Assembly (NCBI GenBank): GCA_015178975.1
Contig: WHVD01000023.1
Coordinates: 558,001 to 622,000, forward strand
Reading direction: 5' to 3'
DNA: 64,000 nucleotides
Source of the DNA: Hysterangium stoloniferum
Lineage: Eukaryota > Basidiomycota > Agaricomycetes > Hysterangiales > Hysterangiaceae
The notes below the pieces were generated by a model that worked only from the letters and a program-made list of their open reading frames with translations, was not told the origin of the DNA and searched no databases. Positions 1-51,125 of this stretch are shown in pieces. The position numbers and the translations under genes are program-made. How positions within the stretch are numbered: position 1 is the stretch's first letter; each line of letters begins with the position of its first letter.

Positions 1-3000
1 ACTAATACGAGACTGAGGTGAGTGTTGCTCTGCGTAATATTTCTTTTACCCTTATATTAATTGTATGTATCAGATACATATAGGTATATACAATACAGTC
101 CGTTATACACTAATACGAGACTGAGATACATATAGAGTTACCTTTTAACAGGTTATGGGCCCCGACTCGTCTATATAGACTACTTATACATTTGTGACGA
201 GTTAGACTGTAACTCTTTTTTTTTAAATGGCCACCCCTGTGACAGCCTCTGCAGATGAGCTTGCACCCTCAATTACCGCACTTCGCACCAATCTCACTTA
301 CTCTGGCCCTAAACTAGATAAACTTCAATCTAACTATCAAGCATGGCTTCGTGCCGCCACTCTATTCTTAACCTTAACTGGTTTCTACGGCTATGCCAAG
401 GGCACAATCACTCAACCTGGTCCTGAGCACCCCCGGGCCTGAGCCAACTGGGACAGCAATAACTCTCTCACAGCTGCTCTCATTGCCTCCACCATCGAAT
501 CGACTGAATGGGAATATATTGACTTGGACCTTGGCGCAAAATCCTGCTGGGATACCCTTCTAACCTGCCACAAAAGCCAGGGACCCATTCGTCAGGTTCA
601 ACTGCTCCAAACGGCCCTTCTCAGCCAATTCTCCCATGGTACTCCATTGCCTACAACAGCCGAAGCAATCTGTGCCTCTGTTGACCGTGCGTACGACATG
701 GGTGATATCTCACGGGACCTCTTCAAATGTATCGCCTTACTCAACGCCTTGGGCACTGATTTTCAACACCTGCGTTCTATCATTACCCGTGACATATCCC
801 AGTCCACTACAACAAAACCCTTCACTTCCGTACAACTCCATTCTTACTTGGACAGTGAGCAGGCATTGATGACCTCCGATACCACTAAGCATTCCACCAC
901 TGCTAACTCCATCGCTTTGACCGCATCCAAGTCTGACAGTCCACCTGTCTGCTCTAATTGTAAGAGACGACGCCACACTGTCGACTATTGTGTGGCACCC
1001 GGTGGTGGAATGGCTGGCAAAAGCATTGAGGAAACCAAACTCGCCAGGCTCCGTGATTGTGGGGTTGCACAGTTAAAACCTTCCCCCTCCACTCACTCCT
1101 AACCCCGTCCCCGTCTCAAAAATTCCTGTCCATGTGAAGGGCGCTGATGGTCGCACATACATTGCACAAATGAATCCTTCCGACGTATCCATTTTGCATA
1201 CTACTGCCCCAGATTTCACTGGGATCGTTGCCCCTCCATCGCACACTATCCCCTCGCCCCCACTTACACTGGATACTGTTGAGTACGATGGCTGGATTGT
1301 CCTTGAGGAGGAGCTGAAAACTACCGTGGATTGGAACAAGCACAGTCAACCATCTCCCACCGTCCTGAGCGCCTCTACTGTCCAACCATTATCACAAACA
1401 AACCAAACTCCATTATCTACGGAGTCTCACCCCTTTTGGTTGGATAGCGGTGCAACTATACACATATCACCTGATCAAGCTGACTTCATCACCTTAAGAG
1501 CCGTCACACCTCGTTCTGTAAGAGGTTTAGGAGGATCATCTATATGGGCCATTGGAATAGGCGATATCAAAATACGTCTAGGCCGAGGATCCCACATCCT
1601 TCTTCAGGACGTGCTATACATCCCTGAAGCAGTTGTATGCTTAATCTTGGTTCGATGCCTAACTCGCGACTCCAATGTTATTGCACATTTCGATCATGAC
1701 TCTTGTTGGCTCAACACCAAGTCATCTAACTCCATAATTGCCCACGGCTCCTTACTCCTACACAAAAACCTTTACTCATTGATGCTACAATCTGCACAAG
1801 TGGAACATGCTCTCATCACGCAAAATCTACCCACTCTCGGGACTTGGCACTGCTGCCTTGGGCATGCTAACTACAAATCCATCACTGACATGCTCAACAA
1901 TGGCCTGATCAAAGGTGCACGACCAACCTCAACTACTGCCCCCCCCCAAATGTGACTCATGTATCATTGGAAAGCAGACGAAGTCTCCTGTTCCAAAAAT
2001 ACGTGAGGCGGGGTTAGGGCATAGGGGGACCAGGAAGCTTGAAAAAGTCTGGATAGATCTGTCTGGACCACACGCTGTAACATCACGAACTGGAAATAAT
2101 TATATTATGAATATAGTTGATGATTTTACAAGCTATGTATGGACCATCCCTTTGAAACACAAAAGCGACGCCTTCCCTGACCTTCAAACATGGGAATGGG
2201 CTTGGGAAGTCAAGACAGGTCTCAAGGTTGGGATATACCGCACTGATAATGGAGAACTCAAGAGTCATGAAATGTCAAACTGGTTAGCATTAAGGGGAAC
2301 AGAACAGCAGTTTACTGCGCCCTATACATCGGCGCACATAGGGCGTGTTGAGCGAATGCATCGGACACTTATGGGAAAAGCAAGATCAATGCGTATCTAT
2401 GCTAGTCTACCTGCTTACTTATGGGATGAACTATACCTCACTGCAGCCCATCTTCACGTGAAAACTACCACTACTACCCTTCAAAACAAGACCCCATGGG
2501 AACTTTGGTACGGACGTCCCCCTGACTACTCTTATATGAAAGAGATCGGATGTTGTGCTTTTGTCCTTATTCAAAACAAAACAAACCCAAAAATATTTGA
2601 ACGCTCTATCGAATGCATACTAGTTGGGTATGATGCGAAATCAAAATCTTATTGATGCTATGATCAGTAACCCACCAAATCTATAGTTCTTATCACGTTC
2701 GTTTCCTAGAAAGTCATGATGGCCACCCTAAATCACCTTCATCTAGGACTGACGCTCCCCTTACCACGTCTCCATTGCCACTATCTTCTGGGTCCACTGC
2801 CATCAGCTCTTCCATTGACGCCTACGATGAACCCCCACCACTCCCTATCATTTCGGAAGTGCCAGATGCATTACCTCCCACCAATGAGCAACCTCTTCGC
2901 CGCTCCACTCGTACAACGGCTGGTATTCCTCCAGGGTCCAATAGACTCCAGCAATCCATTCAGGCATCGAAGGATAGTGCTGCACGCCTGCACCTTGAAA

Positions 3001-5057
3001 AATTAGCGTGTTCACAAGCTATTGTTAACTTGCCAGAACTATCCTCATCTCCTGACCTGGAGCAAATACAAGATGCTCTTTTGTCCCTAAACTCAGGATA
3101 CGACTCCCCTAGCTTCGATCTCACTTTAGCAGCCATCTCCGATGGCATTGGGATCGATCCACTAACTTGTGATGATGAGCCTAAACCTTGGGAGGAGGCG
3201 TTATGCTCAGGGGATGCAGAGCGGTGGCAGGCTGGTTTCCAAGATGAACTTGATTCCCTCAAAGCGATGGGAGTCTATAAATTAGTCCCTAGGTCAGAAG
3301 TCCCTCAAGGGTGAAAAATCAGAAAGGGCCGCCCCATTTTCCACATAAAAAGGGATGAACATGGCAATGCTGTCCACTGGAAAGTCAGGCTTGTCTTTAA
3401 GGGTTTCGAACAAATATATGGAAAGGATTATCATCAAACTACCTCACCTACTGCACGCATGGAGTCCTGGTGCATACTCCTCCACATCACTGCCACTCTT
3501 GGATGGGATGCCCAACAAATTGACATTAAGACCGCTTTCCTTTACGGTCTACTCCCAGATGACGAGATTCAGTTTATGGAACAACCCGAAGGTTTTGCTG
3601 CACGTGGGAAACATGATTATGTCTGGATGATCTTACATGGTCTATATGGCATGAAGCAGAGTGGATGTATCTGGAATCAACTATGAATGAGCAAATGCTC
3701 ACCTGGGGCTTTACTCGGCTTCCATGTCAACCTTGTCTCTATTATCGCCAAATGCCGACTGGCATTATTATTGTAGCCATCCATGTCGACGACTTCTTGT
3801 CCATTGCCAGCAACGCTGCTGAGAATAAATCTTTCAAGACTCAGATGCGTGCCGTTTGGACTATCTCCGAGTTGGGTTCTGTCCGTTTTGTTGTTGGTAT
3901 AGCTGTTGAATTAGACCGACACAACCATCTCGCCCTTCTTTCCCAATCAGCTCTGATCAACAAAATCATCTGCCAATTTGGTCAGACCCATGCTTCAATC
4001 GTCTCCACCCCGATGGACCACAACCTCAAGCTTCGTCGGACCGATCGCACATCTCTCTCCCAACCTAGCCTGGACGCCATCCTTAAACTACCCTACCAGT
4101 CCCTTGTTGGCTGCTTACTCTACCTTGCCATTTCCACACGCCCTAACATTTCATATGCCGTTCAACAGCTGTCTCAATACCTTGACAGCTACTCAATTCC
4201 CCACTGGACTGCCACCATTCGAGTTGTTCGATACTTAAAAGGCACTCGTGATCTCCGACTATGCCTCAGGGGGTCAAACACCCTTTCTTTGATTGGGTAT
4301 ACTGACTCTGATTGGGCCAATTGTTTGGATACCCATCACAGTGTCAGTGGCTATGCCTTCACCCTTGGCTCTGGTATTATTTCTTGGACATCAAAAAAGC
4401 AAAAAACTGTTGCTGCGTCATCATGTGAAGCTGAATATGTAGCTGCTTTTGAGTCTGTCAAGGAAGGCACCTGGCTCCGTAGCCTTTTCCGCAGTATTTC
4501 CATGCTTCCCCCCTCCCAAACCACCATATTCTGTGACAATAATGCTGCCACTGCCCTCTCCGAGGATCCCCTCCTTCACTCCTGGGTCAAACATATTGAC
4601 ATTAAGTTCCATTTCCTCTGGGAACGTGTCCAGGCTGGGGATTTTCGTCTTCACTACATCCATACGAAGGAAAATTTAGCTGATATCTTCAAGAAGGCCT
4701 TAGAACCGTCTCAGTTTATCAAACTACGAGGTTTTCTGGGTCTCAAGTAGTTGGACTTCATGCAAGGAGGAGTTTTAACAGTGAGGAGGAGTGTTGGGAT
4801 AACACCGTGAAACCTTATTGTCACATGTTAGGCACATACACAGTCATCGTTCCCCGTGTGGTATTTAAACTGCATAGTTACAACATTTACACCTCAGTCC
4901 ATTATACACTAATACGAGACTGAGTTGAGTGTTGCTCTGCGTAATATTTCTTTTACCCTTATATTAATTGTATGTATCAGATACATATAGGTATATACAA
5001 TACAGTCTGTTATACACTAATACGAGACTGAGATACATATAGAGTTACCTTTTAACA
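1..5057 (+). mobile_element. Ty1/Copia LTR retrotransposon A (fossil)
   Basis: Seen: part of the 5' LTR at 1-150 (the window edge cuts it), a 266-bp 3' LTR at 4792-5057 ending in the same sequence, a primer-binding site directly after the 5' LTR (151-163, GGTTATGGGCCCC) and a purine tract directly before the 3' LTR (4781-4791). The order of parts is gag-like (about 227-1102, with a zinc-knuckle-like CxxC motif near 950), protease and GAG-preintegrase (about 1134-1955), integrase core (about 1915-2655), then reverse transcriptase and RNase H (about 2775-4750; YTDSDWANC and SSCEAEYVA motifs in RNase H). That order (integrase before RT) defines Copia. The primer site matches the complement of the anticodon arm of initiator tRNA-Met, a half-tRNA primer as in Drosophila copia. 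The element is broken in roughly half a dozen places. It is a member of the same family as element C at 61-64 kb. Confidence 0.92.
4792..5057 (+). repeat. 3' LTR of Copia element A
   Basis: A 266-bp repeat beginning TGTTGGGATAAC and ending CCTTTTAACA (TG...CA). Its last 150 bp recur at 1-150. It contains an internal tandem duplication: a block ending in ACTAATACGAGACTGAG occurs twice about 110 bp apart. Few differences separate the two LTR copies over the shared 150 bp, so the insertion is probably young compared with the Gypsy fossil that follows. Confidence 0.9.
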
Positions 5058-5064
5058 TAAATTA

Positions 5065-6147
5065 CAGTTGTGAGAGTCAAATGAGGATGTCAGATGGAAA
5101 AATGAATGGATGCGAATGAGTCAAAGGTGAGGTGTTTGCCTTGTCAGAAAAGCAAAGTCGATGTCAAAAAAAAAGTGTAAGGCTGTCAGTATCAGCCTCA
5201 CTTGGTCAACATGGACAGGACTAAGTTTTCTTTATTTTTAAATATCAGTAGGATACAAGGTGAATGCGAGGTTCCCTAGGGAAGAGTGGGGAAAGGATTA
5301 ATGGTCAAATAGAAGATTGATTTGATCACTATAAGATATGGGTTTTTATATAGTCAAGGTGAATGTGGTGGGAGAACAAAGAACCACATGATCAGGCACA
5401 AGGACACTATTTAACAATCAAGTGGCAGAACAATGAGTGGTTGATGGGAGAGGTTGGTGATGATGTATGTGGTAAGGTGGCCAGGCTTACACATAGGATG
5501 GCAAGGGTGGACTTTGCTCTGGCACACAAGGACTGGACTGTGGATGATTGGAAGAGGGTTGTTTGGTCAGATGAGACAAAAATCAATTATTTGGGGTCAG
5601 ACAGGAGGAAGTGGGTGTGGATAAGGGCAGGAGAGGGGCTCAGTGATAGGCTGGTTGAGGGTACAGTCAAGTTTGGAGGAGGAAATCTGATGTTGTGGGG
5701 CTGTATGTTGTGGGAAGGACCAGAATATTCCACCAAGATTGATGGAAGGATGGATGCTCACCTTTATGTTAGCATTCTGGAAGATGAACTTCAAGCAACA
5801 TGGAGTATTATGGCAAGAACAAAGAAGATGTGGTCTTGTAGCAAGAAAATGACCCCAAACACAAGAGCAAGAAGGCCACCAATTGGTTTAAAGACAATGG
5901 ATTTGTGGTCATGATATGGCAACCTCAGTCTGCTGACCTTAATCCAATTGAACACCTCTGGCATTACCTCAGAAAGAGGCTGGGAGAGTATGAAGTGGCA
6001 CCCAAGAGTATCCATGAGTTGTGGGAGAGGTTCAGACAGAGTGGGAGAAGATCCCTGCCTCTACTTGTCAGAACTTGATAGATAGATAGTATGCCTAGAA
6101 GGGTAGAGGCTGTTTTGAAGGCCAAGGGAGGCTATATCAATTACTAG
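5065..6147 (+). pseudogene. Tc1/mariner-like transposase, decayed
   Basis: The transposase C-terminal two thirds can be followed from about 5363 to a stop at 6145-6147. Seen: the first catalytic Asp in a WSDETKIN motif (about 5566-5590), a GGGNLMLWGC block typical of Tc1, an NDPKH block near 5850, a SADLNPIEHLWHYLRKR motif holding the third catalytic residue (Glu in PIEHLW, about 5930-5970), and the typical Tc1 tail AKGGYINY. Broken: the reading frame has a stop and a frame change around 5835-5910, and the position normally occupied by the second catalytic Asp (QQDNDPKH in Tc1) reads QEND. The N-terminal helix-turn-helix part (5065-5360) is too decayed to follow. A possible left end, CAGTTGTGAGAG, lies at 5065 after a TA, directly downstream of the Copia LTR. 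This copy cannot encode an active enzyme. Confidence 0.8.
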
Positions 6148-9404: not shown

Positions 9405-10682
9405 GATATGCATGGCAGGGGATATGAATTTTTGATTGTTATGACATTCAGTTTCCTGTAATCCTGAACCAGTCTCATGGATCCATGCTTCTTTTTGACA
9501 AAATATTTTGGAGATGCCATAGGAGATTTGGAGGGTTGGATCCTGCCACTTTTGAGCTTTTCCTCTAGAAATGCATCTAACTCCTTTTGTTCATTGGATG
9601 ATAAGGGCTAAAGCTTGGTTCTGAAAGGTTCTGACCCAGGTTTTAATTCAATGGCATGATTCCAGACACTGGAGGCATCCCAAGATTTTTGGAGTTGGAA
9701 AACCTTCAGAAAATCTTGTTATTTGGCCAAATTTTCTAAGTGTTTTGTGAATTGAAAAACTCTTTGAAAATTCTGAGTTTTAGTAGGTTTTTCTGAGGCC
9801 AAAAATTGGATCTGAAAATTCTAAAAATTTGCATCAGGAAATTATGAGGAAATATTGTTGGAAATAGCCTATTCTTTATGGATTTTCTGAATAAGAAAAC
9901 TTTTAGAAAACCCTGTATTTTGTTAGGATTTTTCCACCTAACAAAATCCTATGAAAACTGTAATAATGTGCCTAGAGAAATCAATTGAAAACCACATATT
10001 TCTACTTAATTTTGCCTCTGAGGGAATTCAGTGAAAACTATGGTTCTCTGCCTGAAAATATCTTGAGCCAAGACAAAGTTTTTTTAATGTTTTGTCAAGG
10101 GGAAAACCATGATGACATTTACAATTTAATTATACATAAAATCATTTAATAATTAGATATTTCAACAAAATTTTTCTTGGTCATAAACACTATGGAAATT
10201 CAAAAAATCTATTTGTGAAATCATGAAGAAATTGATGATTTTCCATGAGTTTCTTAGAGGTTTTTCAAGGTGAGAAACCCTGAACTGATGTTTTGCAATT
10301 CAGCACGATTCGCAAATATTCGAAAGGATACAGTGCGATTCAGTGCGATTCACAAATATTTGTAAAGATACAGTGTGATTCATTACAATTGGCAAGTGTT
10401 CGGGAATATTCAATGCGATTTGCAAGTTTTCAGGAGGCTAGAGTGTGACTCTTTTAGACTTTTTTGTCAGGGGACAATCTCAAGTTTTCTAAATTCATCC
10501 CTGACCTTCCTTAATATAGTCTCATAAGTCAAGGATAAGAGTACTTTGTTTTCATCACATTTTCAAACTCAGCTGCACCTTTAGTTAGTCACTCGCTAGC
10601 CGAGGATTCCTTAGACTTTTCTCTTCGGATTCCCTTTGCTAGTGCCCCAACTCAGTCATAGTGCGAGTCAGTGTGGTCTAGA

Positions 10683-11030
10683 GAGTCGCCCTTACACTTT
10701 TTGCAACTATTCTAGACTCTTTGTGATTGTTTGCAAATGTTTGCAACTCTGATAGAGTGTTTGCAACTCTTTTGGACTTTTTGCAACTCTTTTGGACTCT
10801 TTGCGACTCTTTTGGACTCTTTGTGACTCTTTTGGACTCTTTGTGACTCTTTTGGACTCTTTGTGACTGTTATAGACTCATTACGACTGTTATAGACTCT
10901 TTGCAACTGTTATAGACTCTTTGTGACTCATGTAGACTCTTTGCGACTTTTTGTGACTCGTTTAGATTCTTCACAACTCTTTTAGACTCTTTGCGACTTA
11001 CTCTTTGTGACTCTTTGAAAAGTTGCAAAG
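10683..11030. repeat. 20-bp subterminal tandem array, left arm
   Basis: Irregular tandem units of about 20 bp of the form GACTCTTTTGGACTCTTTGT with variants (TTGCAACTGTTATAGACTC and others). About 17 units. Subterminal short repeats are the usual transposase-binding region in CACTA elements, which fits the assignment; that role here is an inference. Confidence 0.8.
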
Positions 11031-11271
11031 TTGCACAAAGTCACAAAGTGTCACATAAAGTCACAAGGTGTCACACAAAGTCGCAAAGCGAGGAAAAAAA
11101 TGCATCACTATCAATTATATACATAATCTATGTTAAGAAGAAGCCGCAGCAAACCTGATATACAGTAGGAGGTACACATCGCATGTGAATTTGAAGCTGG
11201 GGGATGATGGCATGGAACAAGAAAATGGGGCTTGGGGCAGGCAGTATCCAAGATGGCGGCAGCGGCAGGGG

Positions 11272-12879
11272 TGTTATGTATTTTTAGGTTTTTCCAATTT
11301 TTAACCAATTTCCTCCTAAACAAATTGATAAAAACACGTTTAAATGTACTTATATTGCGACGAAATTATTGTACAATAGTCTCTTGAAATTAACTTGATT
11401 TTTTTCAATTTATTTCATATTTTTATCATTTATTCTTGGAAAGTTATTGAATTTCTACTGTTTATTCTTTTTTATCTAAATATCTTCTAAGTCGGCCATC
11501 TGGCGCTTATTGCGCAATGCGTGGGAAAATTTGTCACAACAAGTGACATTTGTCACAACAGGTGACATTTGTCACAACAGGTGACATTTGTCACAACAGG
11601 TGACATTTGTCACAACAGGTGACATTTGTCACAACAAGTGACCGGCATCATAACAAGTGACTGTCGTCACAAAATGCGACGACTTGTCACAAACGCGACT
11701 CAGCTGTCACAAACGCGACTCAGCTGTCACAAACAGCTGAATAATAATAATGTCACACATATGGAAACATTGTGACATGCGTGGGAAAATTATGTAATCA
11801 GCGTGCGCACAAAATCAGCAACTTTGCGATGCGCAAGAACATTACATCAGCATATATGCTACAATGGAAAGTAGTAGAAACTCCTGGAATATTCCAGCAG
11901 ATTCCAGGTAAAATAGCAAAAAATAGGTAAAACAAGTAGCTAGAACATTCTCCCATGTCTCAGATTTTACTGTATATAAGGAGCTCTGCTCCACCACTGA
12001 AATATAAATCATTTTAACTCATTTTAACCATCTTAACCAGCCACATCAGTGTGCCACTGCAGCAGCAGTTATATTCCACCCCTAATTGGGCTGTTGGACA
12101 AATACATATATACACTTAGTCACCTCTAGTTGAGCTGCTGACCTAAGCTAACCCAGAATCCCTTAACCACCTCTAGTTGAGCTGTTGGTTATCAATCAAT
12201 AATAAATAAACAAACAATCTTGTTCCCTTTTTGCCACCTCTTAGTTGAGTAGCTGGCTATCCTTTATTACTAATCCACCTCTAGTTGAGTAGTTGGTTAT
12301 CAATTTAAGTAATAAATATATTAGGTTATATTGAGATTAGAAATACATATATTCTAATTTCTACCCAGTTTTTGGCATAAATAAATACTGAGAATATTCT
12401 TGCAGAATCCTTAAGACTACATTAAGATCCTGATAAGTTAGTATCACAGTAGACCCTGTAGGTTAGTGTAAATAAAGCATATATTAGCCAAATAGTGTTT
12501 TATTCTATATCTAATCTTTTGACCTGTTTATTAATATTTTTACTGTTTGATAAATAGTATAAAATATATATAAACTAGCTAGAATCGAAGTTGAATCTAG
12601 TTTCGGAATCAGTGAATTGTTATTCATATTTTAGTAGTGTTTTTACAGAAAAAGAACAAGCTTGCACAAGCAGCTCTCAAAACCTTCTTTGCGAAGTAGG
12701 GTGCATATATTCAAGTAAACTCTTGACTTCAGGGGTTCTAAGTCTATTCAGGCTGCCACTGATTAATATCAAATACTTAAATTATTTTACCTTGCAGTGA
12801 ATTGAGTATTTGCACATTTTGATAGAGCATTGGACTCCTTTTTCGGAAAATAGTATTAAAATAAGGCTAATACATCACA
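11272..12879. mobile_element. 1.6-kb solo LTR inserted in the palindrome arm
   Basis: A 1,608-bp block starts TGTTATGTATT and ends AATACATCACA, which are imperfect inverted ends (10 of 11). It is flanked by the 5-bp duplication AGGGG (11267-11271 and 12880-12884). The matching position of the other palindrome arm (about 15,760) lacks the block and shows a single AGGGG, so this is an empty-site comparison within one molecule. No coding sequence was found. TATATAAG at 11973 is a candidate promoter. Two repeat types lie inside: a 19-bp unit array and dispersed copies of a CTAGTTGAG motif. A solo LTR is the simplest reading; a small complete element is not excluded. Confidence 0.8.
11530..11645. 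repeat. 19-bp palindromic tandem repeat in the solo LTR
   Basis: Six to seven units with a 19-bp period (GTCAC starts at 11533, 11552, 11571 and onward). Each unit GTGACATTTGTCACAACAG contains the inverted pair GTGAC/GTCAC. The array lies about 330 bp upstream of the TATATAAG motif, where an LTR enhancer would sit. Further GTCAC-containing variants continue to about 11,735. Confidence 0.85.
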
Positions 12880-13200
12880 AGGGGGCAGGCTGGGGTGATG
12901 GTGGGTAGGTACAGGTAGTTGAGTATCGATACCAGTATCATCAGGCGCAGGATATAAACGAGACATTGGTTATATTAAGTAGAATATACTTTTTACTTGT
13001 ATAAATCTTGAAAGCTGGTGCAGTGCTGGCCAGGGCGGGGTGACAAGGCGGGGAGAGGTGGTGTGGGCATGATGGTGTGATATAATATGCTGAGCAAGAA
13101 ACAGGGAATCCAACTCCAAGTCTAGCTGGAGAGGATAGCAATAGAAGTGGGGGGGGATAACCAAAGGGAGCCGGCCAGAGGAGATGATGGCAAAACATGA

Positions 13201-13628
13201 TCACTCATCCATCCTATTCATATCTCCATTTTCATCGTCCGCATACTGCTCCACAGACTGCCATGCTGCACATTTGCGGGGGACAGCGCAAGTGTGGTCT
13301 CCAGGCCTGACGGGTGCTGGTACGACTGGCATGTCGTCGACATGTGTGGGTGATGCGAGCCAATATACGACGTGTAGTGTGAGTCGCATGCCTCCTCGTG
13401 AGAAATGGCCCAGCCCCACCTCCACGCCTGATCCACCCCCCACTGCACTGCTCGAGCTGGTCATGGTGGTGCTCGGCAAGCCCCCAGGGCCCTGTGGGAA
13501 AAATGGCGCCATCAGCGTCCCAAGCCCCAGCATGCCACCCCCACCCCCTCCACCGCTGCTGCCCCTACTTGCATTCCCCGCACCACTGAGGCTGCTGTAT
13601 CTGCTCCCGCCATTCCCCACGATGCTGG
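13201..13628 (-). pseudogene. Inverted partial copy of the HMG-box-type gene 3' end
   Basis: The minus strand repeats the glycine-rich segment and C-terminus of the gene fragment at 14,396-15,443 (blocks GGGGGGGMLGLGTL and RKCAAWQSVEQYAD in one frame; SYQHPSGL and SPANVQHGSLWSS in another). It forms the inner end of the left palindrome arm, and the homology stops at 13,628 inside the Gly-rich region, so it lacks the upstream half. Substitutions relative to the right-arm copy are visible throughout, many of them transitions. It cannot be a functional gene by itself. Confidence 0.7.
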
Positions 13629-13639
13629 AGGTGTGCGAT

Positions 13640-14400
13640 ATGAATTTTTGCGACTCTTTGTGACACTTTGAGACTTTGTGTGACTCTGTGACTGTTTGAA
13701 CTTTGTGACTTTTTGTGACTTTTTGCGACTTTGCGACTTTGTGTGACTTTGTGACTTTTTGTACTTTGTAACTTTGTGTGACACTTTGCGACTTTGTGCA
13801 ACTTTTTGTGACACTTTGAGACTTTGTGTGACTCTGTGACTTTTTGAACTCTTGTGACTTTTTGCGACTTTTTGCGACTTTGCAACTTTGTGTGATATTT
13901 TGTGACTTTGTGGGACTTTGCGACTTTTTGTGACACTTTGCAACTTTGTGTGACATTTTGCAACTTTGTGTGACACTTTGCAACTTTGTGACACTTTGCA
14001 ACTTTGTGCGACTTTTTGTGACACTTTGGGACTTTGTGTGTGACACTTTGCGACTTTGTACTTTTTGTGACACTCTGCGACTTTGTGTGATACTTTGCGA
14101 CTTTGTGCGACTTTTTGTGACACTCTGCGACTTTGTGACACTTTGTGACTTTGTGTGACTTTGCGACTTGACCCAGTGTGTTGCAAAAAGTCACAGAGTG
14201 TCACACAATGTCACAGAGTGTCACACAATGTCACAGAGTGTCACACAATGTCACACAATGTCACAGAGTGTCACACAATGTCACACAATGTCACAGAGTA
14301 TCACACAATGTTGCAAAGTGTTACAAACAGTAGCACAGTGTCACAAACACAAAAAGTCACATAGTGTCACAAAGTTGCAAAGTGTCGCAAGCAGCTTGAC
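13640..14400. repeat. Central short-unit repeat block with an axis of inversion
   Basis: From 13,640 to about 14,170 the plus strand is built of 10-20-bp units such as TTTGTGTGACACTTTGCGAC. From about 14,175 to 14,400 the complement dominates (GTCACAGAGTGTCACACAAT units). The polarity flips near 14,170, so this block is itself a palindrome inside the larger one. The same unit family occurs in the arms at about 10,990-11,090 and 16,060-16,200. Long open frames through it are an artefact of the repeat. Confidence 0.8.
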
Positions 14401-15443
14401 CAAGCCAAAAAAGTTGAAGGAAAACTTCCACTCCAAGTACCCCAATACATCTACCGCCCCCGCCCCAACAACAGCTGCAAGAAGTGCCGCACCAATGCCT
14501 CGCTTTATGACACCTCCATCTTGCCGCACGACTTCCCTGCCGATGAGTACGGCAGCATCTCCCCCATCGACGGCGCACCCTACTGCCTCCCCTACGGGCT
14601 CGCCATGGCCTACTACTCCAGCAGCAGCCACTACGCCAATGCTGTGCCTGTGCTGAATGGACCCGCCATCCACACGGACGCCGACAATCACTTCCCCCCC
14701 GCTGTGACATGGCACCCCGCCTTCCCCAAGCTGGGGCACACGCACGGCAGCCACTGGCCCCACAGGCCGCAAGGACACGGGTATGGGCCGCACGACCATG
14801 GACAGGGACATGGGCACGGGCATGGGCCACATGGCGGCGGCAGCGGCGGTGATGGACACGGGAATGGGCCCTAGGACACGCTGCACCCCGTGCCGCTGCA
14901 TGCGATCGTGCACGGCGGCGTGCACCCCCGTACCACACACAGAACTGGTCTGCCGAGACCGGCTCGAGTGCAGACTTTGGGGGCTTCCCACCTGGGCTTG
15001 GTAGCGGTGCTGCGGGGAATGGCGGGAGCAGATACGGCAGCCTCAGCGGGAGCGGCAGTGGTGCGGGGAACGCAAGTAGGGGCGGCAGTGGCGGAGGTGG
15101 TGGGGGCGGCATGCTGGGGCTTGGGACACTGACGGCACCGTTTTTCCTGCAGGGCCCTGGGGGCTCGCCGAGCACCACCACGACCAGCTCGAGCGGTGCA
15201 GCGGGGGGTGGATCGGGCGCGGAGGTGGGGCCGGGCCATTTCTCGCAGGGAGGTGTGCGACTCGCACCACACATTGTATACTGGCTCGCATCACCCGTAC
15301 ATGTCGACGACACGCCAGTCGTACCAGCACCCATCAGGCCTGGTGACCATGCTTGCACTGTCCCCCGCAAATGTGCAGCATGGCAGTCTGTGGAGCAGTA
15401 TGCGGACGTTGAAAACAGAGATATGAATAGGATGGATGAGTGA
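14396..15443 (+). pseudogene. HMG-box-type transcription factor gene fragment carried by the transposon
   Basis: The GC-rich fragment begins inside what looks like the last helix of an HMG box (KLKENFHSKYP followed, one base out of frame, by YIYRPRPNNSCKK). HMG boxes of fungal and SOX factors commonly end in YxYRPR plus basic residues. Downstream come a His/Gly-rich stretch, a Gly/Ser-rich stretch (about 15,000-15,110) and a Ser/Thr/Pro/His tail (HPYMSTTRQSYQ, SPANVQHGSLWSS). At least three frame changes (near 14,445, 14,880 and 15,100-15,250) break it, and the first part of the box is absent because the short-repeat block abuts it. GC content and CpG content are far above the flanking arms, so it was captured from a host gene. 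Identification as HMG is by motif only; another basic C-terminal motif is possible. Confidence 0.55.
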
Positions 15444-17472
15444 TCACATTTTGCCATCGTCTCCTCTGGCCAGCTCCCTTTGGTTATCCCTCCCCCACTT
15501 CTATTGCTATCCTCTCCAGCTAAACTTGGAGTTGGATTCCCTTTTTCTTGCTCAGCATATTATATCACACTATCATGCCCACACCACCTCTCCCCGCCTT
15601 GTCACCCCACCCCGGCCAGCACTGCGCCAGCTTTCAAGATTTATACAAGTAAAAAGTATATTCTACTTAATATAACCAATGTCTTGTTTATATCCTGTGC
15701 CTGATGATACTGGTATTGATACTCAACTACCTGTACCTACCCACCATCACCCCAGCCTGCCCCCTGCCGCTGCCGCCATCTTGGATACTGCCTGCCCCAA
15801 CCCCCATTTTCTTGTTCCATGCCATCATCCCCCAGCTTCAAATTCACATGTGATGTGTACCTCCTACTGTATATCAGGTTTGCTGCGGCTTCTTCTTAAC
15901 ATAGATTATGTATATAATTGATAGTGATGCGTTTTTTTCCTCCCTTTGGTCCATGTGCTGTGTGTATAGTGTATCATTGTTTGTGGTCATAGAGAAAAGA
16001 GGATAATAGAAATTTTGGAGGCTTTTTACATAGATTATTATTGTGTGAAGACACTGTGCTATGATTTGTGACACTTTTGCGACTTTTTGCAACACGACTT
16101 TTTGCGATACTTTGCTTTGTGTGACACTTTGTGACTTTGTGTGACTTTGTGACTTTATGTGACACTTTGTGGCTTTGTGCGACTTTGCAACTTTTCAAAG
16201 ACACAAAAAGTCGCAAAGAGTCTAAAAAAGTCACAAAGAGTCTAAAAGAGTCACAAAGAGTCACAAAAAGTCACAAAGAGTCTAAAAGAATCGCAAAGAG
16301 TCATAAAAAGTCGCAAAGAGTCTACATGAGTCACAAAGAGTCTATAACAGTTGCAAAAAGTCTATAACAGTCGTAATGAGTCTATAATAGTCACAAAAAG
16401 TCCAAAAGAGTCACAAAGAGTCCAAAAAAGTCACAAAGAGTCCAAAAGAGTCGCAAAAAGTCCAAAAGAGTCGCAAAAAGTCCAACAGAGTCGCAAACAG
16501 TCCAAAAGAGTCGCAAATAGTCCAAAAGAGTCGCAAACAGTCCAAAAGAGTCACAAAAAGTCCAAAAGAGTCACAAAAAGTCCAAAAGAGTCGCAAACAG
16601 TCTATCAGAGTTGCAAACAGTCGCAAACAATCACAAAGAGTCTAGAATAGTTGCAAAAAGTCTAGAATAGTTGCAAAAAGTCTGAAAGAGTCGCACTCTA
16701 GCCTCCTGAAAACTTGCAAATTGCATTGAATATTCCCAAACACTTGCCAATTGTAATGAATCACACTGTATCTTTTCAAATATTTGTGAATCGCACTGAA
16801 TTGCACTGTATCCTTTCGAATATTTGCGAATCGTGCTGAATTGCAAAACCTCAGTTCAGGGTTTCTTACCTTGAAAAACCTCTAAGAAACTCATGGAAAA
16901 TCATCAATTTCTTCATGATTTTACAAACAGATTTTTTGAATTTCCATAGTGTTTGTGACCAAGGAAAATTTTGTTGAAATATATAATTATTCAATGATTT
17001 TATGTATAATTAAATTGTAAACTTCATCATGGTTTTCCCCTTGACAAAACATTAAAAAAACTTTGTCTTGGCTCAAGATATTTTCAGGCAGAGAACCATA
17101 GTTTTCACTGAATTCCCTCAGAGGCAAAATTAAGTAGAAATATGTGGTTTTCAATTGATTTCTCTAGGCACATTATTACAGTTTTCATAGGATTTTGTTA
17201 GGTGGAAAAATCCTAACAAAATACAGGGTTTTCTAAAAGTTTTCTTATTCAGAAAATCCATAAAGAATAGGATATTTCCAACAATATTTCCTCATAATTT
17301 CCTGATGCAAATTTTTAGAATTTTCAGATCCAATTTTTGGCCTCAGAAAAACCTACTAAAACTCAGAATTTTCAAAGAGTTTTTCAATTCACAAAACACT
17401 TAGAAAACTTGGCCAAATAACAAGATTTTCTGAAGGTTTTCCAACTCCAAAAATCTTGGGGTGCCTCCAGTG
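15008..17472. repeat. Right arm of the palindromic element
   Basis: This uninterrupted arm of about 2,465 bp pairs with the left arm. Its 20-bp array (about 16,200-16,690) is longer than that of the left arm (about 350 bp), so repeat number has drifted between arms while the flanking sequence stayed very similar. Outer end: ...CCAAAAATCTTGGGGTGCC followed by TCCAGTG and the AGA duplication. Confidence 0.85.
16200..16690. repeat. 20-bp subterminal tandem array, right arm
   Basis: Inverted counterpart of the array at 10,683-11,030. Units such as AGTCCAAAAGAGTCGCAAAA are repeated about 24 times. GAGTC/AGTC cores recur every 10 bp, so a sequence-specific protein would meet its site once per helical turn; this spacing is seen, its use is inferred. 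Confidence 0.8.
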
Positions 17473-18541
17473 AGAGCTTCCTATCAGGTAATCTGTCAAA
17501 GGACTCTTTGGAGAACACTTCCCTAAATTGGTGACAGTTGGGGACTAAATCCTCAAAGGTTTTCTTCTGGTCCTGTTTATGAGATTCTTCTGCCACCTTC
17601 TGATATACAGTAGAAGTAGCATTGACATTAGCTTGAGGATAGACAGTTGTAGCCAGCTCCTATCACTGTCTTCAATCCCTGACTGGTCATCTTCCTTCTC
17701 TTCATCTTCAGTCTCAATGAGACTAGGGAGTTTCCTTTTAAATTCTGCTGCCTTTCTCTGCTTCTTCCTCCTAATTCTCCTAACCTCTATAGGACATTGA
17801 GATAAACATCAGGTAAAGTAAACTTCTCCAGTCCTTCAATTTATTTCTGGGTTGTGTTGGTATAACCAAGTGTGTCCAATGATAGCAGGTGTATCCCCTG
17901 GGTCACATACATACATACAGCAAAGGTGGTTTTTTCTGTAGGGTTTTGGAATATCATTGTTAAATGTACTTCCTCTTGGATAGATCCCCCATGATTCAGT
18001 ATTCCATTAACATTGTAGACTGGAATAGCTCTGGGAAGCTTGACAGTATTAGAGCTATGATACTCCACAAATTTCTTATCTAGAAAAACACCTGTGACTC
18101 CAGACTCAAGGAGGGCTGTAACAGAAATTCTGGCTCCTGTGTCTAGTGTTCTGAGGACAACTGAAAGGTGTGTAGAAGTCTTGGGATAAGTGCTTCTGAT
18201 AAAAATGTTTTGTGGGGGAGTTTCTGGGTGGGATGTGATGTTACATTCACACTTTCACTTAATGCTGCATGTGAACATACACATGACATTGTGTGAATGT
18301 ACATATAATGTTGTCACAGACAATGATGCATGTGGATGAGATTGTGTGTGTGTTGTTGCATTGCATGTGTTGTTGCATCGCACATGTTTGTCACAAATGT
18401 ACAAACTCAAATTTCAATAATAATCAATTTAATATTTCTTCGACATTCCTTCAACTTCCAACTCAACTATTCTTCAACTTGTCTCAGTTTGATGTCATTG
18501 ATGATTTCACTTTGAGATCATATTATCATCATAGGTAAATG

Positions 18542-35701: not shown

Positions 35702-36631
35702 TTAGCTTACAAAGACGCTGAGATCAAATTGCCCGGAGGCAGAAACGTCGGTGTACTGGTGGCCGACAGCAGTGGTCCAGCTGCAGGGTGAAAGTTAGGA
35801 TTTCATTAGTTGTCCTGAAATAAATGTCTAAAGCCCTTACCCCCCGAAATGAGTTCCTAATGTGACGGTCTGAGAAAAATAGATTACATCAGTGAATGGT
35901 CTTTGCTTGTGGATATGTGCTGTTCACCTGGACATCATTGAAAGTTGCAAACCAAAGGGGAGCAGTGTCGTCTAGGATAACTGAGGTGGACCCGAACATG
36001 GCGCTCCATTCCTAAACACGTGGCGAACCAGTCAGAATATGATTCTCTGGGTATTCACCCGGTCTTTGCTCATGAAACTAAGACTTACGCCGGGAGTACT
36101 GTAGATACCAAAGTTGAAGCCCGATGCTTTGATCGCCGAGATAATAGCTTTGGCTTGCGCAAGATTACCCGCAGTACCGAAATCCCACTAAAATTTATGA
36201 AAAGGTTAGATTCTGTTGTATTGTAAAGGTTAACAAGACTTCACGTTGTTACAAATAGAATCTTTTTCGAGGTCGATCCAAATAGTGCCAATCTTCATAC
36301 TGTGTGCACTGAACGTTGCACCGATTTCGGCGATCTGAGTGGCAAAGGACTTGCAGTTGTGGGTGCTCCCAGTACATGGGAACCAGTATGTGTCGATGTC
36401 GGTGTAACCAGCAGCACGAGCATTGTTGTAGGTGGCGACGAAGTTGGGGTCGACTTCACCTCCTACCCCGCATGCTTCTTCAAAACCACGGATAATAGCT
36501 TTAGTGAATCCTTCCCCTCTCGCTTTCGTGTAGGTGGCCACAGATACTAGGGTGGAAGAGTCTACAGCATGAACAAGAGCAAAAGCAGGCGAGATAAGAG
36601 TTGCAAGAGTAATAACTATAAATCGGATCAT
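35702..36631 (-). CDS. Secreted GH25-type lysozyme, five exons
   Basis: Five exons: 36,631-36,245, 36,187-36,089, 36,011-35,928, 35,869-35,841 and 35,780-35,702. All four introns start GT and end AG, all phases agree, and the sum is 678 nt (225 residues plus stop). I chose the ATG at 36,631, which starts directly with a signal peptide (MIRFIVITLATLISPAFA), over an in-frame ATG 57 nt upstream. The mature part follows a GH25-like plan: VDSS start, SVATYTKARGEGF, NFVATYNNARAAGYTDIDTY (strand after which Cys residues follow), IGTIWIDLEKD carrying the Asp/Glu pair expected in the active site, FGIYST and QYTDVSASGQFDLSVF at the end. This matches the short GH25 lysozyme-like proteins of fungi, amoebae and nematodes. 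It would be secreted and cleave bacterial peptidoglycan; family by motif, activity inferred. Confidence 0.85.
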
Positions 36632-36700
36632 CTTGCCAACGACTATGTTTGAAGGTAATGTTCGCGGTAATTCCACACAGGTGAACACAGACAGCTGTGT

Positions 36701-40965: not shown

Positions 40966-43900
40966 ATTCATTTTCTATATTACTCATGTTTTCTAACATG
41001 GTAGCAACTCCATGTCCAAGATGTATTGACGCTGTGATAGAGTAATAGTATGCTTTGTCCTGTCTCTTTCAATGCCAACACCTAACAAGTAAGAAGTAGG
41101 ACCAAGATCATGCAATTTGAAGTGGCTCTTTAGATCATCTTTGAGCTTTTTGATAGCCTCCTTGGATTTAGATGCAATAGTCATGTCATCTACAAATACT
41201 GGTATAATGACTTTGACATCACCCTTTTGGAAGACCCAAATGCTATGATCGCATAGCACTTGTTTGAAACCCAAACTGAGCAGGACAGCATTCAACTTCT
41301 TGTGCCAGATACGAGGTGACTGGCGTAAACCATATAGTCCTTTCAGAAGAAGTAAGAACTCATCACGAGCACCTTGGTGAAAACCTTCAGGCTGCTGCAA
41401 GTATACTTCCTCTTCAAGTTCACCATTCAAGAATGCAGAGGAGATATCTACACTCTCAAGTTCCATGTCCTCCAGTGCAGCCAATGCTAGGACAGCACGC
41501 AAAGTGGCCCATTTGGCAGTAGGAGCAAAGGTATCAGTGAAGTCAAACCCTGGTCGTTGTGCATAGCCTTTTGCAACAAGACGAGCTTTGAACTTGTCAA
41601 TTGACCCATCCTTCTTATGCTTGATCACAAACACCCAACGAGAGCCAATAGCTTTACGACCCTCAGGTAGTTTAGCAAGGCGAAAAGTGCCATTTTCAAG
41701 CAGGGATTGCATTTCTGCATATGCAGCGTCATACCACTTGTCAGCATCAGGACTTTGTAAGGCCTCTTTGAGAGTTCTCGGTGCATCATCATGAGCACTG
41801 GCCTTGTAGGCAAACTCAAAGGCTTCATCCACACCAATGTAAAGATCTCCCTCACTGGCAGCTAGGGCTTCTTCCTCAGACTCGACTGGAGGAGGAGAAT
41901 GTAGTGGAGAATCCTCTGCCTCATCACTGGACTCAACTACAGGAGTAGATTCTCTATAGTTGTGGATGTGAGCAGGGTCAACTTGCCAGAAACGCTTAGG
42001 AGGAACTCTGTTTCTGGGTGGATTGCAACGTGGTTGGAGGAGGACTCGGTGAATGTTCAGAATGTTCAGAATTAGAATCAGAGTTGGAACTAGGACCAGG
42101 AGGCAAAGCATTATTCTGACCATCTCCCACTGGATTTGGTTCCTGTGGAGCTCCCATCTGATTAGGCTGGGCTCCCACCTGAATAGACCTAGAGGGTCCA
42201 GGAATAAACAAATCAATAAATTGTGGAGTATCAGGAAGAACATCAGGAGCAGTAGGAGTAGAAGATATGGCAGGTTTAGACAAGCCTGGTAAGACTCTCT
42301 CATCAAAGACACCATTATTACTGATAATAGTCTTCTTAGTCAAGGGATTGTAAAACATCCAACCTTTATAATCTGGAGGATATCCAATAAAGACACATTT
42401 CTGTGTATGAGAGCCAAGTCCAATATGTTGATCCTTCTGTACATGCACATAAGCAGTACAGCCAAATACCCTAAGATGTGATACTTCTGGTTTCCTACTA
42501 TGCCAGACAGTATAAGGCACAGAATGCTTAAGAGCAGTGGTAGGTGAGCAGTTGCGCACATGAGTAATGGCAATGACAGCATGTCCCCAGAATGAGGGAG
42601 GGAGGTGGGATTCAGCCATAATTGAAGTAGCCCCTTCTTCCAATGTTCTGTTGAAGCGTTCAGCAACCCCATTCTGATGTGGTTCATTCCGCACAGTATG
42701 CTGCCGGCTGATGCCAGCAGTGGAAAGGAAGGTATCAAACTCCTTAGACATATATTCTCCACCCTTGTCATCTCTGAATATCTTGATCTTCTGACCAAGC
42801 AAGTTCTCCACTTTAGCCTTATATTGCTTAAATGCCTGAAAGGCATCACTCTTATTTTTGAGTAATGCAATCGAAGCATAGCATGAGGCATCATCAATGA
42901 AAGTGATCCAGTAGCGAAACCCTTCCACAGTTTGTGTAGGCAAGGGACCATGAACATCACTGTGAATGAGTGCAAGTGGTTTAGTATAGCGTGTTGTTGC
43001 TATTTTATTAATCATTCTGTTCTGTTTTCCAGCCAAACAAGGTTCACAAATAGGATCAGGAGACGTGTGAGAGTCAATCTTTATCCCACCAACCAAATCA
43101 CCTTTGAGGAGCTTCTGGATATCGGCATGATTGAGATGATTAAAGCGACGATGCCAAAGTGTAGAGTCCAAGGGACAGGTTGTAACAAGACCTGCATAAT
43201 CCGTCATAGGTACCGTCATTCCATCCAAATAGGCCTGGTTATGTTCATTGACTGTGGCAGTGAAACGCAAGACCTTTCTCAAATAGAAAGACATGGTGGA
43301 ATGAAAGATAGAGACACGGAAATTCTTTCTCTTTGTCAAATACAAGACGGAGAGGAGGTTACTTGTGAGATGGGGAACATGGAGAACCCTTTCAAACTCT
43401 ATTATTACATTTCCATTCCCTTTAGGCTTAAACCACACTGCTCCTATCCCTGCAGACATAACTATTTGTCCATTTGCAACTTGTTTGAAATGGGGTATAA
43501 CTTGAAAACCAATGACGATGGGGAGTCATGTGCGAAGAAGCACCTGTGTCAGCAGTCCAGTCAGAACTAGCATTGACAAGGAGAGCACAAGATGGATCGG
43601 TAGAGTCAGGGATAGAAACACTTGCATTTCCAGCACTCTCTGGTTTCTTCTCCTCTGATACCTTGTCAGACGCATTAGCTTTGTCAGCCTTAGCAGTCTT
43701 TCTTTCTTTATACTCCTTTTTCTTCTGCTCAACTTTGGCCTTTGCCTGTTTCTGTGCATTTGCATACTTGTAACAATTGTCTTGGGTGTGGGTGGAACCA
43801 TTGCAGAATGTGCAAAGAACTTTACCAGAAGTGTTGGAAGTCTTTGACACAATTTTGTTCGCTGTCTCTAAACTTCTGGCAGACTGCAAACTCTCTTGTG

Positions 43901-50396: not shown

Positions 50397-51125
50397 TTAC
50401 CTCAATAAATCAATGTTCTCTTGAACGAGTCTTCCGACTTTTGGCGGCGTGAGGAACCTTTGTAAAAACTTGTTAAAGGCCTTGTCGTCTCGATACGATC
50501 TACTCGAACGATACGCAATCAGCTCATATACTCTCAACTTCGCCATCAACATAACTGTCTTTGCTTTCAAAAGGACTTTCATCCCAACCTTTTCCAAACC
50601 GACTCCACAGTAATAGCCGGGTCCTATTTTGATACTCGATGATGTACTAACATGCTTTAAAGCCATTCCCCAGTCTTCGCAATGACTGCCATATTGGTGG
50701 CCGTCATAGGGTGTAGTGTAGGTGGAGCTCCCTTGCATCACAATAATATTGGGTGGGTCATGGTAGGTTGTTTCTGCTTGGCACTGAAATATGTAGGAAG
50801 TGATATGGATTACATGACAATAGCGTAATACTTTACTCACCAACTCGTCAACCCAAACCTCTATATTGCTTGTGGACAGCGGTATATGCAGGTCGACATC
50901 TGGGACCCGGTAACACAAATCGTGCCCGTGTTCGTTACAGCTCCATCGTTCTCGAAGCTTCGCCCTGAATCTATTCCTCATTCCAGTATCAATTATCTGC
51001 GCTAGTTGCTCCGAGCTCAATACCCCCGGGGAAACCAAGGGTGGTAGCTCCTCCCCGCCTTCAAGGAGGGTCTCTGTCGTTGCCATATCGTGGTTGCTCA
51101 GAGCCGTCTTGTTCAACGTAGACAC
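50397..51125 (-). CDS. Conserved-looking fungal protein of unknown function
   Basis: ATG at 51,125. The first exon (MSTLNKTALSNHDMATTETL...) contains RWSCNEHGHDLCYRVP followed by DLHIPLSTSNIEVWVDEL, a layout (Cys-His pair, then a short polar stretch, then a W-containing helix) seen in many uncharacterised basidiomycete proteins. A GT-AG intron lies near 50,839-50,780 (GTGAGTAAAG to ATTTCAG), and the second exon starts with CQAETTYHDPPN and runs to a donor at about 50,402. The gene may continue into the exons at 50,300 and below. No catalytic motif was seen. Function unknown. Confidence 0.45.
   Translation of the reverse strand: MSTLNKTALSNHDMATTETLLEGGEELPPLVSPGVLSSEQLAQIIDTGMRNRFRAKLRERWSCNEHGHDLCYRVPDVDLHIPLSTSNIEVWVDELVSKVLRYCHVIHITSYIFQCQAETTYHDPPNIIVMQGSSTYTTPYDGHQYGSHCEDWGMALKHVSTSSSIKIGPGYYCGVGLEKVGMKVLLKAKTVMLMAKLRVYELIAYRSSRSYRDDKAFNKFLQRFLTPPKVGRLVQENIDLLR

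What the first reader, a model, noticed from the sequence alone, without database searches (positions are those of the whole stretch)
9665..17475. Giant palindromic CACTA-like element with arms of about 2.4 kb
CACTG termini and a 3-bp duplication (AGA) point to the CACTA superfamily, whose terminal inverted repeats are normally a few tens of bases. Here nearly the whole element is inverted repeat. Such a DNA would extrude as a hairpin, could give double-stranded RNA if transcribed, and may be a route by which non-autonomous elements keep both ends alike through arm-to-arm gene conversion. I know of no described fungal element with this layout.
Basis: partly seen in the sequence, partly recalled or inferred. 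Interest (0 to 1): 0.85.

Follow-up and report, generated by a model that had tools for sequence, protein, structure and literature searches.

The report
Palindromic jumping gene carrying host gene
This is one copy of a family of jumping genes built largely as mirror images, which picked up the tail of a host regulatory gene and which, in several copies, has kept its two mirror halves alike by copying one onto the other.

Summary
Window 9667-17472 is a 7.8-kb element with CACTG..CAGTG ends and an AGA duplication, inserted in a Ty3/Gypsy element whose siblings show the empty site. It belongs to a large family (357 terminal 34-mers at up to 3 mismatches, control 0). Exact 3-bp duplications flank 16 of 22 single elements compared. 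The arms hold a ~0.8-kb terminal repeat, 10-bp arrays and a fragment of a host HMG-box gene, found at its own locus. In 13 of 13 paired loci the two fragments lie head to head. Six of nine fetched two-armed copies share a central spacer, which points to one origin. Other copies carry sharp arm-to-arm identity tracts (about 3.0 kb in L024; an internal 855 bp in L022), which supports gene conversion; the window copy shows none. Five ~375-bp relatives are palindromes end to end. CpG sites are heavily mutated, as under methylation. Closest known kind: Foldback/Galileo-like elements plus Pack-TYPE gene capture, with CACTA-like ends. No transposase lies inside the 177 termini compared, so CACTA membership rests on ends and duplication. 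There is no RNA evidence.

The parts
9664..9666 (.). left copy of the 3-bp target duplication (AGA)
   Evidence: single copy at the empty site of a sibling Gypsy element, L038
9667..10464 (+). left terminal inverted repeat, starts CACTGGAGGCATCCC
   Evidence: 98% inverted match to 16675-17472; family terminus
10693..11083 (+). left outer array of 10-bp GACTCTTTGT-type repeats
11084..11271 (-). captured HMG-gene fragment, left arm, 3'-UTR part
   Evidence: 89% to the host gene L035
11272..12879 (.). solo-LTR-like insertion (TG..CA) in the left arm, flanked by AGGGG (11267-11271 and 12880-12884)
   Evidence: absent from the right arm; not searched for elsewhere in the genome
12880..13618 (-). 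captured HMG-gene fragment, left arm, coding tail and UTR (host match 12888-13586)
   Evidence: 80% to host L035; 91% to 15014-15765
13640..14390 (.). inner 10-bp GTCAC arrays that change orientation in the centre
14395..16050 (+). captured HMG-gene fragment, right arm (host L035 1371-3182, from 18 nt into exon 3, as I read it, to the 3'UTR)
   Evidence: 77% over 1849 alignment columns to host L035
16051..16674 (-). right outer array of 10-bp repeats
16675..17472 (-). right terminal inverted repeat, ends CCTCCAGTG
17473..17475 (.). right copy of the target duplication (AGA)

Best explanation
The feature is a non-autonomous cut-and-paste DNA transposon of CACTA-like type, organised as a foldback. 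An ancestral element captured up to 1.8 kb of a host HMG-box gene (exon 3 to 3'UTR) once. It became a head-to-head inverted duplication around a central spacer, and was then spread by a transposase supplied in trans that recognises the CACTG ends and makes 3-bp duplications. After a break, one arm serves as template for the other (gap repair or synthesis-dependent annealing). This homogenises the arms, can lengthen them into the spacer, and, when it aborts, leaves single-fragment deletion products. Shown: anatomy, family, ends, duplications, host source, shared fragment boundaries, spacer shared by six of nine fetched two-armed copies, identity tracts, CpG decay. Inferred: the trans-acting CACTA-like transposase, breaks as the trigger, the direction from two-armed to single-fragment copies, methylation as the cause of CpG decay. 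Not shown: transcription or small RNA.
For: Ends and duplications. Host gene L035 carries an HMG box (Pfam 3.5e-18 on a spliced piece); with all of L035 as query no copy reaches outside 1371-3182, and 10 of 17 elements with a match reach both limits in at least one arm. 13 of 13 paired loci are (-,+), with 17 singles. Spacer shared by L009, L017, L022, L024, L036, L037 and matched at further loci. Tracts: L024 has no substitution over about 3.0 kb; L036 none over about 2.5 kb; L022 has an 855-bp mismatch-free internal stretch, 0 of 787 differences beside 50 of 790 in the neighbouring part of the gene fragment, and 0 of 5000 permutations reach that run. In L036 the tract runs past the old arm end into the spacer with a 2-bp microhomology at the switch. 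CpG transitions: 264 of 308 sites against 10-11% for other C contexts.
Against: No transposase: 86 Plavaka/PF02992/TNP2-like places against 177 listed termini give none inward within 10 kb, the nearest inward being 18.3 kb away; the remaining termini were not listed. 6 of 17 large copies lack an exact 3-bp duplication. L012 and the window copy lack the shared spacer and L026/27 is not in the capped list. In L009 and L012 the two gene arms fall in different parts of the tree. In 7 of 13 elements the nearest TIR lies in another element (two of these have a truncated TIR). The window copy has no significant identity run. One of ten control pairs of arms from different elements (196 of 5000) is about as extreme as L012 and L017 in the gene part (192 and 179 of 5000).
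Confidence: 0.78

Rival explanations
1. Single-fragment elements are ancestral, and palindromes are made afresh many times by inverted duplication or by two neighbouring inverted copies moving as one element.
For: L024 and L036 arms are identical in the gene part while 1.5% or more from any other element compared; joint mobilisation of neighbouring elements is a published route for Pack-TYPE capture (PMC8903248, passages); L010 and L011 flanks would fit a 33-kb composite; L012 and the window lack the shared spacer.
Against: L009, L017, L022, L024, L036 and L037 share one central spacer, and further loci match it; the internal tract of L022 is hard to get without conversion inside an existing palindrome; single-fragment copies have differing break points.
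Confidence: 0.13
2. The element is a Mutator- or P-type foldback rather than CACTA-like.
For: [quoted passage not shown] no transposase is linked to this family.
Against: 3-bp duplications and CACTG ends fit EnSpm/CACTA; Galileo is flanked by 7-bp duplications (PMC3573991, passages) and Mutator by about 9 bp (recalled).
Confidence: 0.07
3. The giant arms are an assembly artefact.
For: Inverted repeats of this size are hard to assemble; I could not see reads.
Against: The window arms differ by 2-9% in their non-array parts and carry different insertions; copies at unrelated loci have target duplications and mirror layouts.
Confidence: 0.03

Closest known systems
Foldback-like Galileo of Drosophila (PMC3573991, passages read)
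   Same: Long internally repetitive TIRs, TIR growth by recruiting internal sequence (2RT copies), conversion and recombination between copies proposed by its authors.
   Different: P superfamily with 7-bp duplications; here 3-bp duplications, CACTG ends and a captured host gene inside the arms.
Tetris foldback of D. virilis (PMC4079207, passages read)
   Same: Non-autonomous, tandem repeats inside the TIRs, shares ends with a miniature element, no autonomous copy found.
   Different: Animal element with ~220-bp units; no captured gene in the passages read.
Fungal EnSpm/CACTA (PMC12730594, passages read)
   Same: CAC..GTG ends and 3-bp duplications.
   Different: Those families encode transposase and a TET/JBP protein; TIRs of kilobase length do not appear in the passages read.
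Pack-CACTA / Pack-TYPE elements of plants (PMC8903248, passages read)
   Same: Non-autonomous TIR element carrying host gene fragments.
   Different: Here the fragment is duplicated head to head in kilobase arms, and the host is taken to be a fungus (not tested).
Gene capture by fungal transposons (PMC3538342 transduplication; PMC4289320 Helitrons of Pleurotus; both seen in a search listing only)
   Same: Host gene pieces carried by fungal transposons, so capture as such is not new in fungi.
   Different: No palindromic duplication of the captured piece in what the listing shows; the papers were not read.
Mu killer of maize (PMC3440606, abstract read)
   Same: Inverted duplication carrying gene sequence that could give a hairpin RNA.
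   Different: Single silencing locus with RNA data; here a dispersed family without RNA data.

Membership tests
CACTA/EnSpm | 5'-CAC..GTG-3' termini, typically CACTA/CACTG | tested here: met
   criterion from PMC12730594 and recalled
CACTA/EnSpm | 3-bp target site duplication | tested here: met
   exact in 11 of 17 large and 5 of 5 single small elements; empty site
CACTA/EnSpm | TNP2-type DDE transposase in an autonomous relative with the same ends | tested here: inconclusive
   86 transposase-like places against 177 listed termini, none inward within 10 kb; a TNP2 element (L029) has CACTGTAG ends but another TIR
CACTA/EnSpm | short TIRs of a few tens of bases (usual, recalled) | tested here: not met
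   inverted terminal matches from 473 bp to 3.1 kb in 17 copies; TIR length is called unreliable for classification in PMC3573991
Foldback-type element | very long TIRs with internal tandem repeats and a variable middle | tested here: met
Pack-TYPE element | TIR element with host gene sequence and no transposase | tested here: met
   the parent locus L035 has no match to the TIR; no profile search was run on every interior
Hairpin silencer (Mu killer-like) | hairpin transcript and siRNA matching the target gene | not testable with these tools
   only sequence: 91 of 2292 host 21-mers occur exactly in the window element, 229 in L036; Piwi-domain matches exist in the genome

The most novel reading that the evidence does not exclude
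The family works as a dispersed set of natural hairpins against a host HMG transcription factor: the captured exon-3/3'UTR arms give double-stranded RNA whose small RNAs act on the host gene and on the elements, and arm-to-arm conversion keeps the hairpin perfect.
Probability: 0.08. Interest if true: 0.85.

Novelty: new variant of a known kind. Interest (0 to 1): 0.58.

Why it matters
In the papers I saw, foldback elements are animal or plant elements, and the likeness of their arms is explained by conversion mostly as a proposal. This family gives many copies of one palindrome with a captured host gene of known source inside, so conversion tracts, arm growth into the spacer and collapse to single-fragment forms can be read directly, including one internal tract that a fresh inverted duplication alone does not explain. 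It joins three known things in one element: CACTA-like ends, foldback layout and gene capture, with clear potential for double-stranded RNA against a host transcription factor.

Tried and rejected
An HMG host gene was first sought at four PF00505 hits (L031-L034; the other hits except C34 were not fetched); none matched the fragment by blastn, and tblastn gave only weak matches. The parent was then found at C34 (L035).

Protein-coding function of the captured fragment: changes among copies show no purifying selection (27 synonymous against 34.3 expected, 70 nonsynonymous against 63.1; 18 distinct arms, first 100 codons). A pooled ratio of 0.69 (20 rows) counts non-independent pairs and points weakly the other way; I do not rely on it. 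The L011 row of that table is misaligned.

An autonomous relative with a linked transposase: looked for with PF18759, PF02992 and one protein and compared with 177 listed termini; not found. The large interiors of L022/23, L024/25 and L026/27 look like nested retroelements by my reading of their ORFs; no profile was run on them.

The TIR permutation test (80 of 10000) includes L018 and L026/27, whose TIR is truncated on one side. Run tests on TIRs gave 0 of 2000 for L011, L015, L017, L018 and L026/27 and 13 of 2000 for L009; for L017, L018 and L026/27 this reflects a deletion or truncation, so I do not use it.

The CpG decay was not compared with other repeats of this genome, so it is not specific to palindromes.

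Pfam found no family in four window ORFs that I tried for context (36230-36685, 5363-5911, 50397-51122, 42340-42972).

Full report
Observation. The window holds a 7,806-bp element at 9667-17472. Its termini are CACTGGAGGCATCCC.. and ..GGGGTGCCTCCAGTG, flanked by AGA. Inverted arms: 9667-10464/16675-17472 (798 nt, 98%), 10-bp arrays 10696-11083/16127-16664, 11084-11271/15761-15948 (98%), 12880-13618/15014-15765 (91%). The left arm is split by a 1,608-bp TG..CA insertion (11272-12879) flanked by AGGGG, absent from the right arm; I read it as a solo LTR and did not look for it elsewhere.

Target. The flanks read as antisense Ty3/Gypsy pol (my translation, no profile run). A 165-base joined flank finds sibling copies that run unbroken through the site, the best at 93%, with a single AGA in L038; 40 of 51 first-look candidates were scored. 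The element therefore inserted and duplicated 3 bp.

Family. The genome behind the window has 111.1 Mb in 554 contigs. The terminal 34-mer has 178 forward and 179 reverse matches at up to 3 mismatches, control 0 and 0 (100 places listed). From facing pairs in that list I fetched 16 further large elements whole and compared the 17, the window included. Exact 3-bp duplications: 11 of 17 (AAA, TCA, AAT, ATG, CAG, TGT, ACA, CAG, TGG, TAT, AGA); L010, L011, L016, L018, L022/23 and L026/27 do not match exactly. Terminal inverted matches run from 473 bp to 3.1 kb. Five single 374-376-bp relatives, picked from facing pairs, are palindromic from end to end (85-87% self-complementary) and all five have exact 3-bp duplications; a sixth stretch (914 bp, L045) is a pair of them without a matching duplication. 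So 16 of 22 single elements have exact duplications, L045 not counted.

Captured gene. A GC-rich stretch in the arms looked like an HMG-protein tail; Pfam found nothing in it. PF00505 has 9 matches in the genome, none at the places of the elements fetched. A protein search with the stretch gave 77 matches, one of them at C34 beside an HMG-box match. That locus, L035, holds an HMG-box gene with three exons as I read it (spliced piece: PF00505 E 3.5e-18; HMG chains such as SRY/HMGB1 and SOX in the PDB). The elements carry its positions 1371-3182, from 18 nt into exon 3 to the 3'UTR. With all 3,601 bases of L035 as query, none of the 27 arm entries reaches outside these limits, and 10 of 17 elements with a match reach both in at least one arm. 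Full-length alignments are 76-81% identical with gaps counted and 85-90% over letters alone. L035 has no match to the TIR. I infer one DNA-level capture. L016, L019 and L020 have no match to the fragment. The frame of the long third exon of the parent changes once near L035:1.67 kb in this assembly.

Mirror layout. Of 77 matches I kept 43 (at least 58 of 120 residues; host locus and 33 shorter or weaker rows dropped). 26 of them form 13 pairs within 13 kb, all 13 in (-,+) order, and 17 are single, the window among these because its left arm lacks the queried part. Eight of the 13 pairs lie in elements that I fetched with both fragments; the other five were not read whole. With the window that makes nine fetched two-armed copies. 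L009, L017, L022, L024, L036 and L037 share a central spacer, and a genome search finds it again in C553, C79, C20 and others; parts of it are also a dispersed repeat. L012 and the window lack it, and L026/27 does not appear in the capped list. One origin of the palindrome, with later loss of the spacer in some copies, is the simplest reading. Single-fragment elements (L010, L011, L013, L014) join an outer array to the other side at differing points, as internal deletions would.

Arm-to-arm conversion. Mismatches between the arms of one element are not spread evenly (six elements). L024 has none over about 3.0 kb (one gap column). L036 has three in the outer 0.5 kb and none over the inner 2.5 kb (one 20-column gap). 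L009 has one in the first 0.8 kb and 0-9 per 100 through most of the gene part. L017 has none in the outer 1.5 kb (687 bp missing from one arm) and up to 12 per 100 in the gene part. L022 has an 855-bp stretch without mismatch (left coordinates 1267-2122), with differences on both sides; its inner edge lies 88 bp before a nested retroelement insertion in the right arm, so the insertion may have limited the tract. In the gene part of L022 the arms differ at 0 of 787 columns inside the tract and at 50 of 790 beside it, while the nearest other element differs by 3.3% inside it; 0 of 5000 permutations of its polymorphic sites reach that run. A fresh inverted duplication alone does not give an internal tract. 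For L024 and L036 the permutation test says nothing because there are no differences, and fresh duplication is not excluded for them. L012 and L017 give 192 and 179 of 5000 in the gene part, but one of ten control pairs gives 196; L009, L037 and the window are not significant there. For the TIRs alone, 6 of 13 elements have their nearest relative in the same element and 7 do not. In the tree of 24 rows (L018 and L021 left out) the arms of L024, L036, L022 and L017 pair with strong support or identity and those of L037 and the window with weaker support, but L009 and L012 have arms in different places: L009_R with L024 (98/94), L009_L and L012_L with L036 and L022 (97/92). An ancestral two-armed element later converted in either direction explains this; exchange between elements explains it too.

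Arm growth. In L036 the right half of the spacer is replaced by an inverted copy of the left half, leaving about 190 bp at the centre; the switch point shares 2 bp with the old sequence. This matches the recruitment of internal sequence into the TIR described for Galileo (PMC3573991, passages). I infer gap repair copying from the opposite arm followed by microhomology joining.

Silencing. Among 475 distinct changes in the gene arms, CpG transitions hit 264 of 308 CpG positions against 10-11% of other C contexts; in the TIRs 16 of 16 against 13-16% (two truncated TIRs left out). The genome has two DNA-methylase matches (control: 10 of 14 genomes) and 19 Piwi-domain matches (control: 1 of 14). 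Methylation is the likely cause but was not measured. The fragment shows no purifying selection as coding DNA.

RNA. Exact host 21-mers: 91 of 2292 in the window element, 229 of 2292 in L012 and L036. A hairpin transcript could therefore reach the host gene, but no RNA evidence exists here.

Classification. Ends and duplication fit fungal EnSpm (CAC..GTG, 3 bp) and not PlavakaA or PlavakaB ends (PMC12730594, passages). Of 177 listed termini none has one of 86 transposase-like places inward within 10 kb; the nearest inward is 18.3 kb away. A TNP2 element, L029, has CACTGTAG ends but an ambiguous duplication. I therefore say CACTA-like, working as a foldback and as a gene-capturing Pack-TYPE element. 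Six paper searches listed no fungal foldback of this layout; only the open-licence library was searched. Gene capture by fungal transposons as such is known (PMC3538342, PMC4289320, listing only).

Limits. Reads were not available.

Noticed in passing
L010 and L011 (G000:C44:147703-152531 and 176588-180992): Outer flanks of the two elements both read AGA and the inner flanks both AAA, so the 33-kb stretch may have moved once as a composite; these are four 3-bp words only, so chance is not excluded.
   Followed up: partly
L017 about 5391-5816 (minus, element coordinates); L037 centre: A second possible captured gene in the centre: weak CBM21 match (E 0.0035, below Pfam's cut-off) in L017, with similar DNA in L037.
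   Followed up: partly
L029 443-7428 (G000:C339): A TNP2/Transposase_21 element with CACTGTAG ends, a different family that shows CACTG ends in use by a TNP2 element in this genome.
   Followed up: partly
L045 (G000:C120:118485-119398): Two palindromic miniature elements side by side (1-375 and 541-914), outer ends without a matching duplication.
   Followed up: no
window 3665-4747 and 61365-61928: Copia-type reverse transcriptase fragments (RVT_2).
   Followed up: partly
L035 near 1.67 kb (host HMG gene): The frame of the long third exon changes once at a homopolymer; sequencing error and real change are both possible.
   Followed up: no
L016, L019 and L020: Further subfamilies with related TIRs (about 85-87%) but without the HMG fragment; L019 and L020 hold long arrays instead.
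   Followed up: partly
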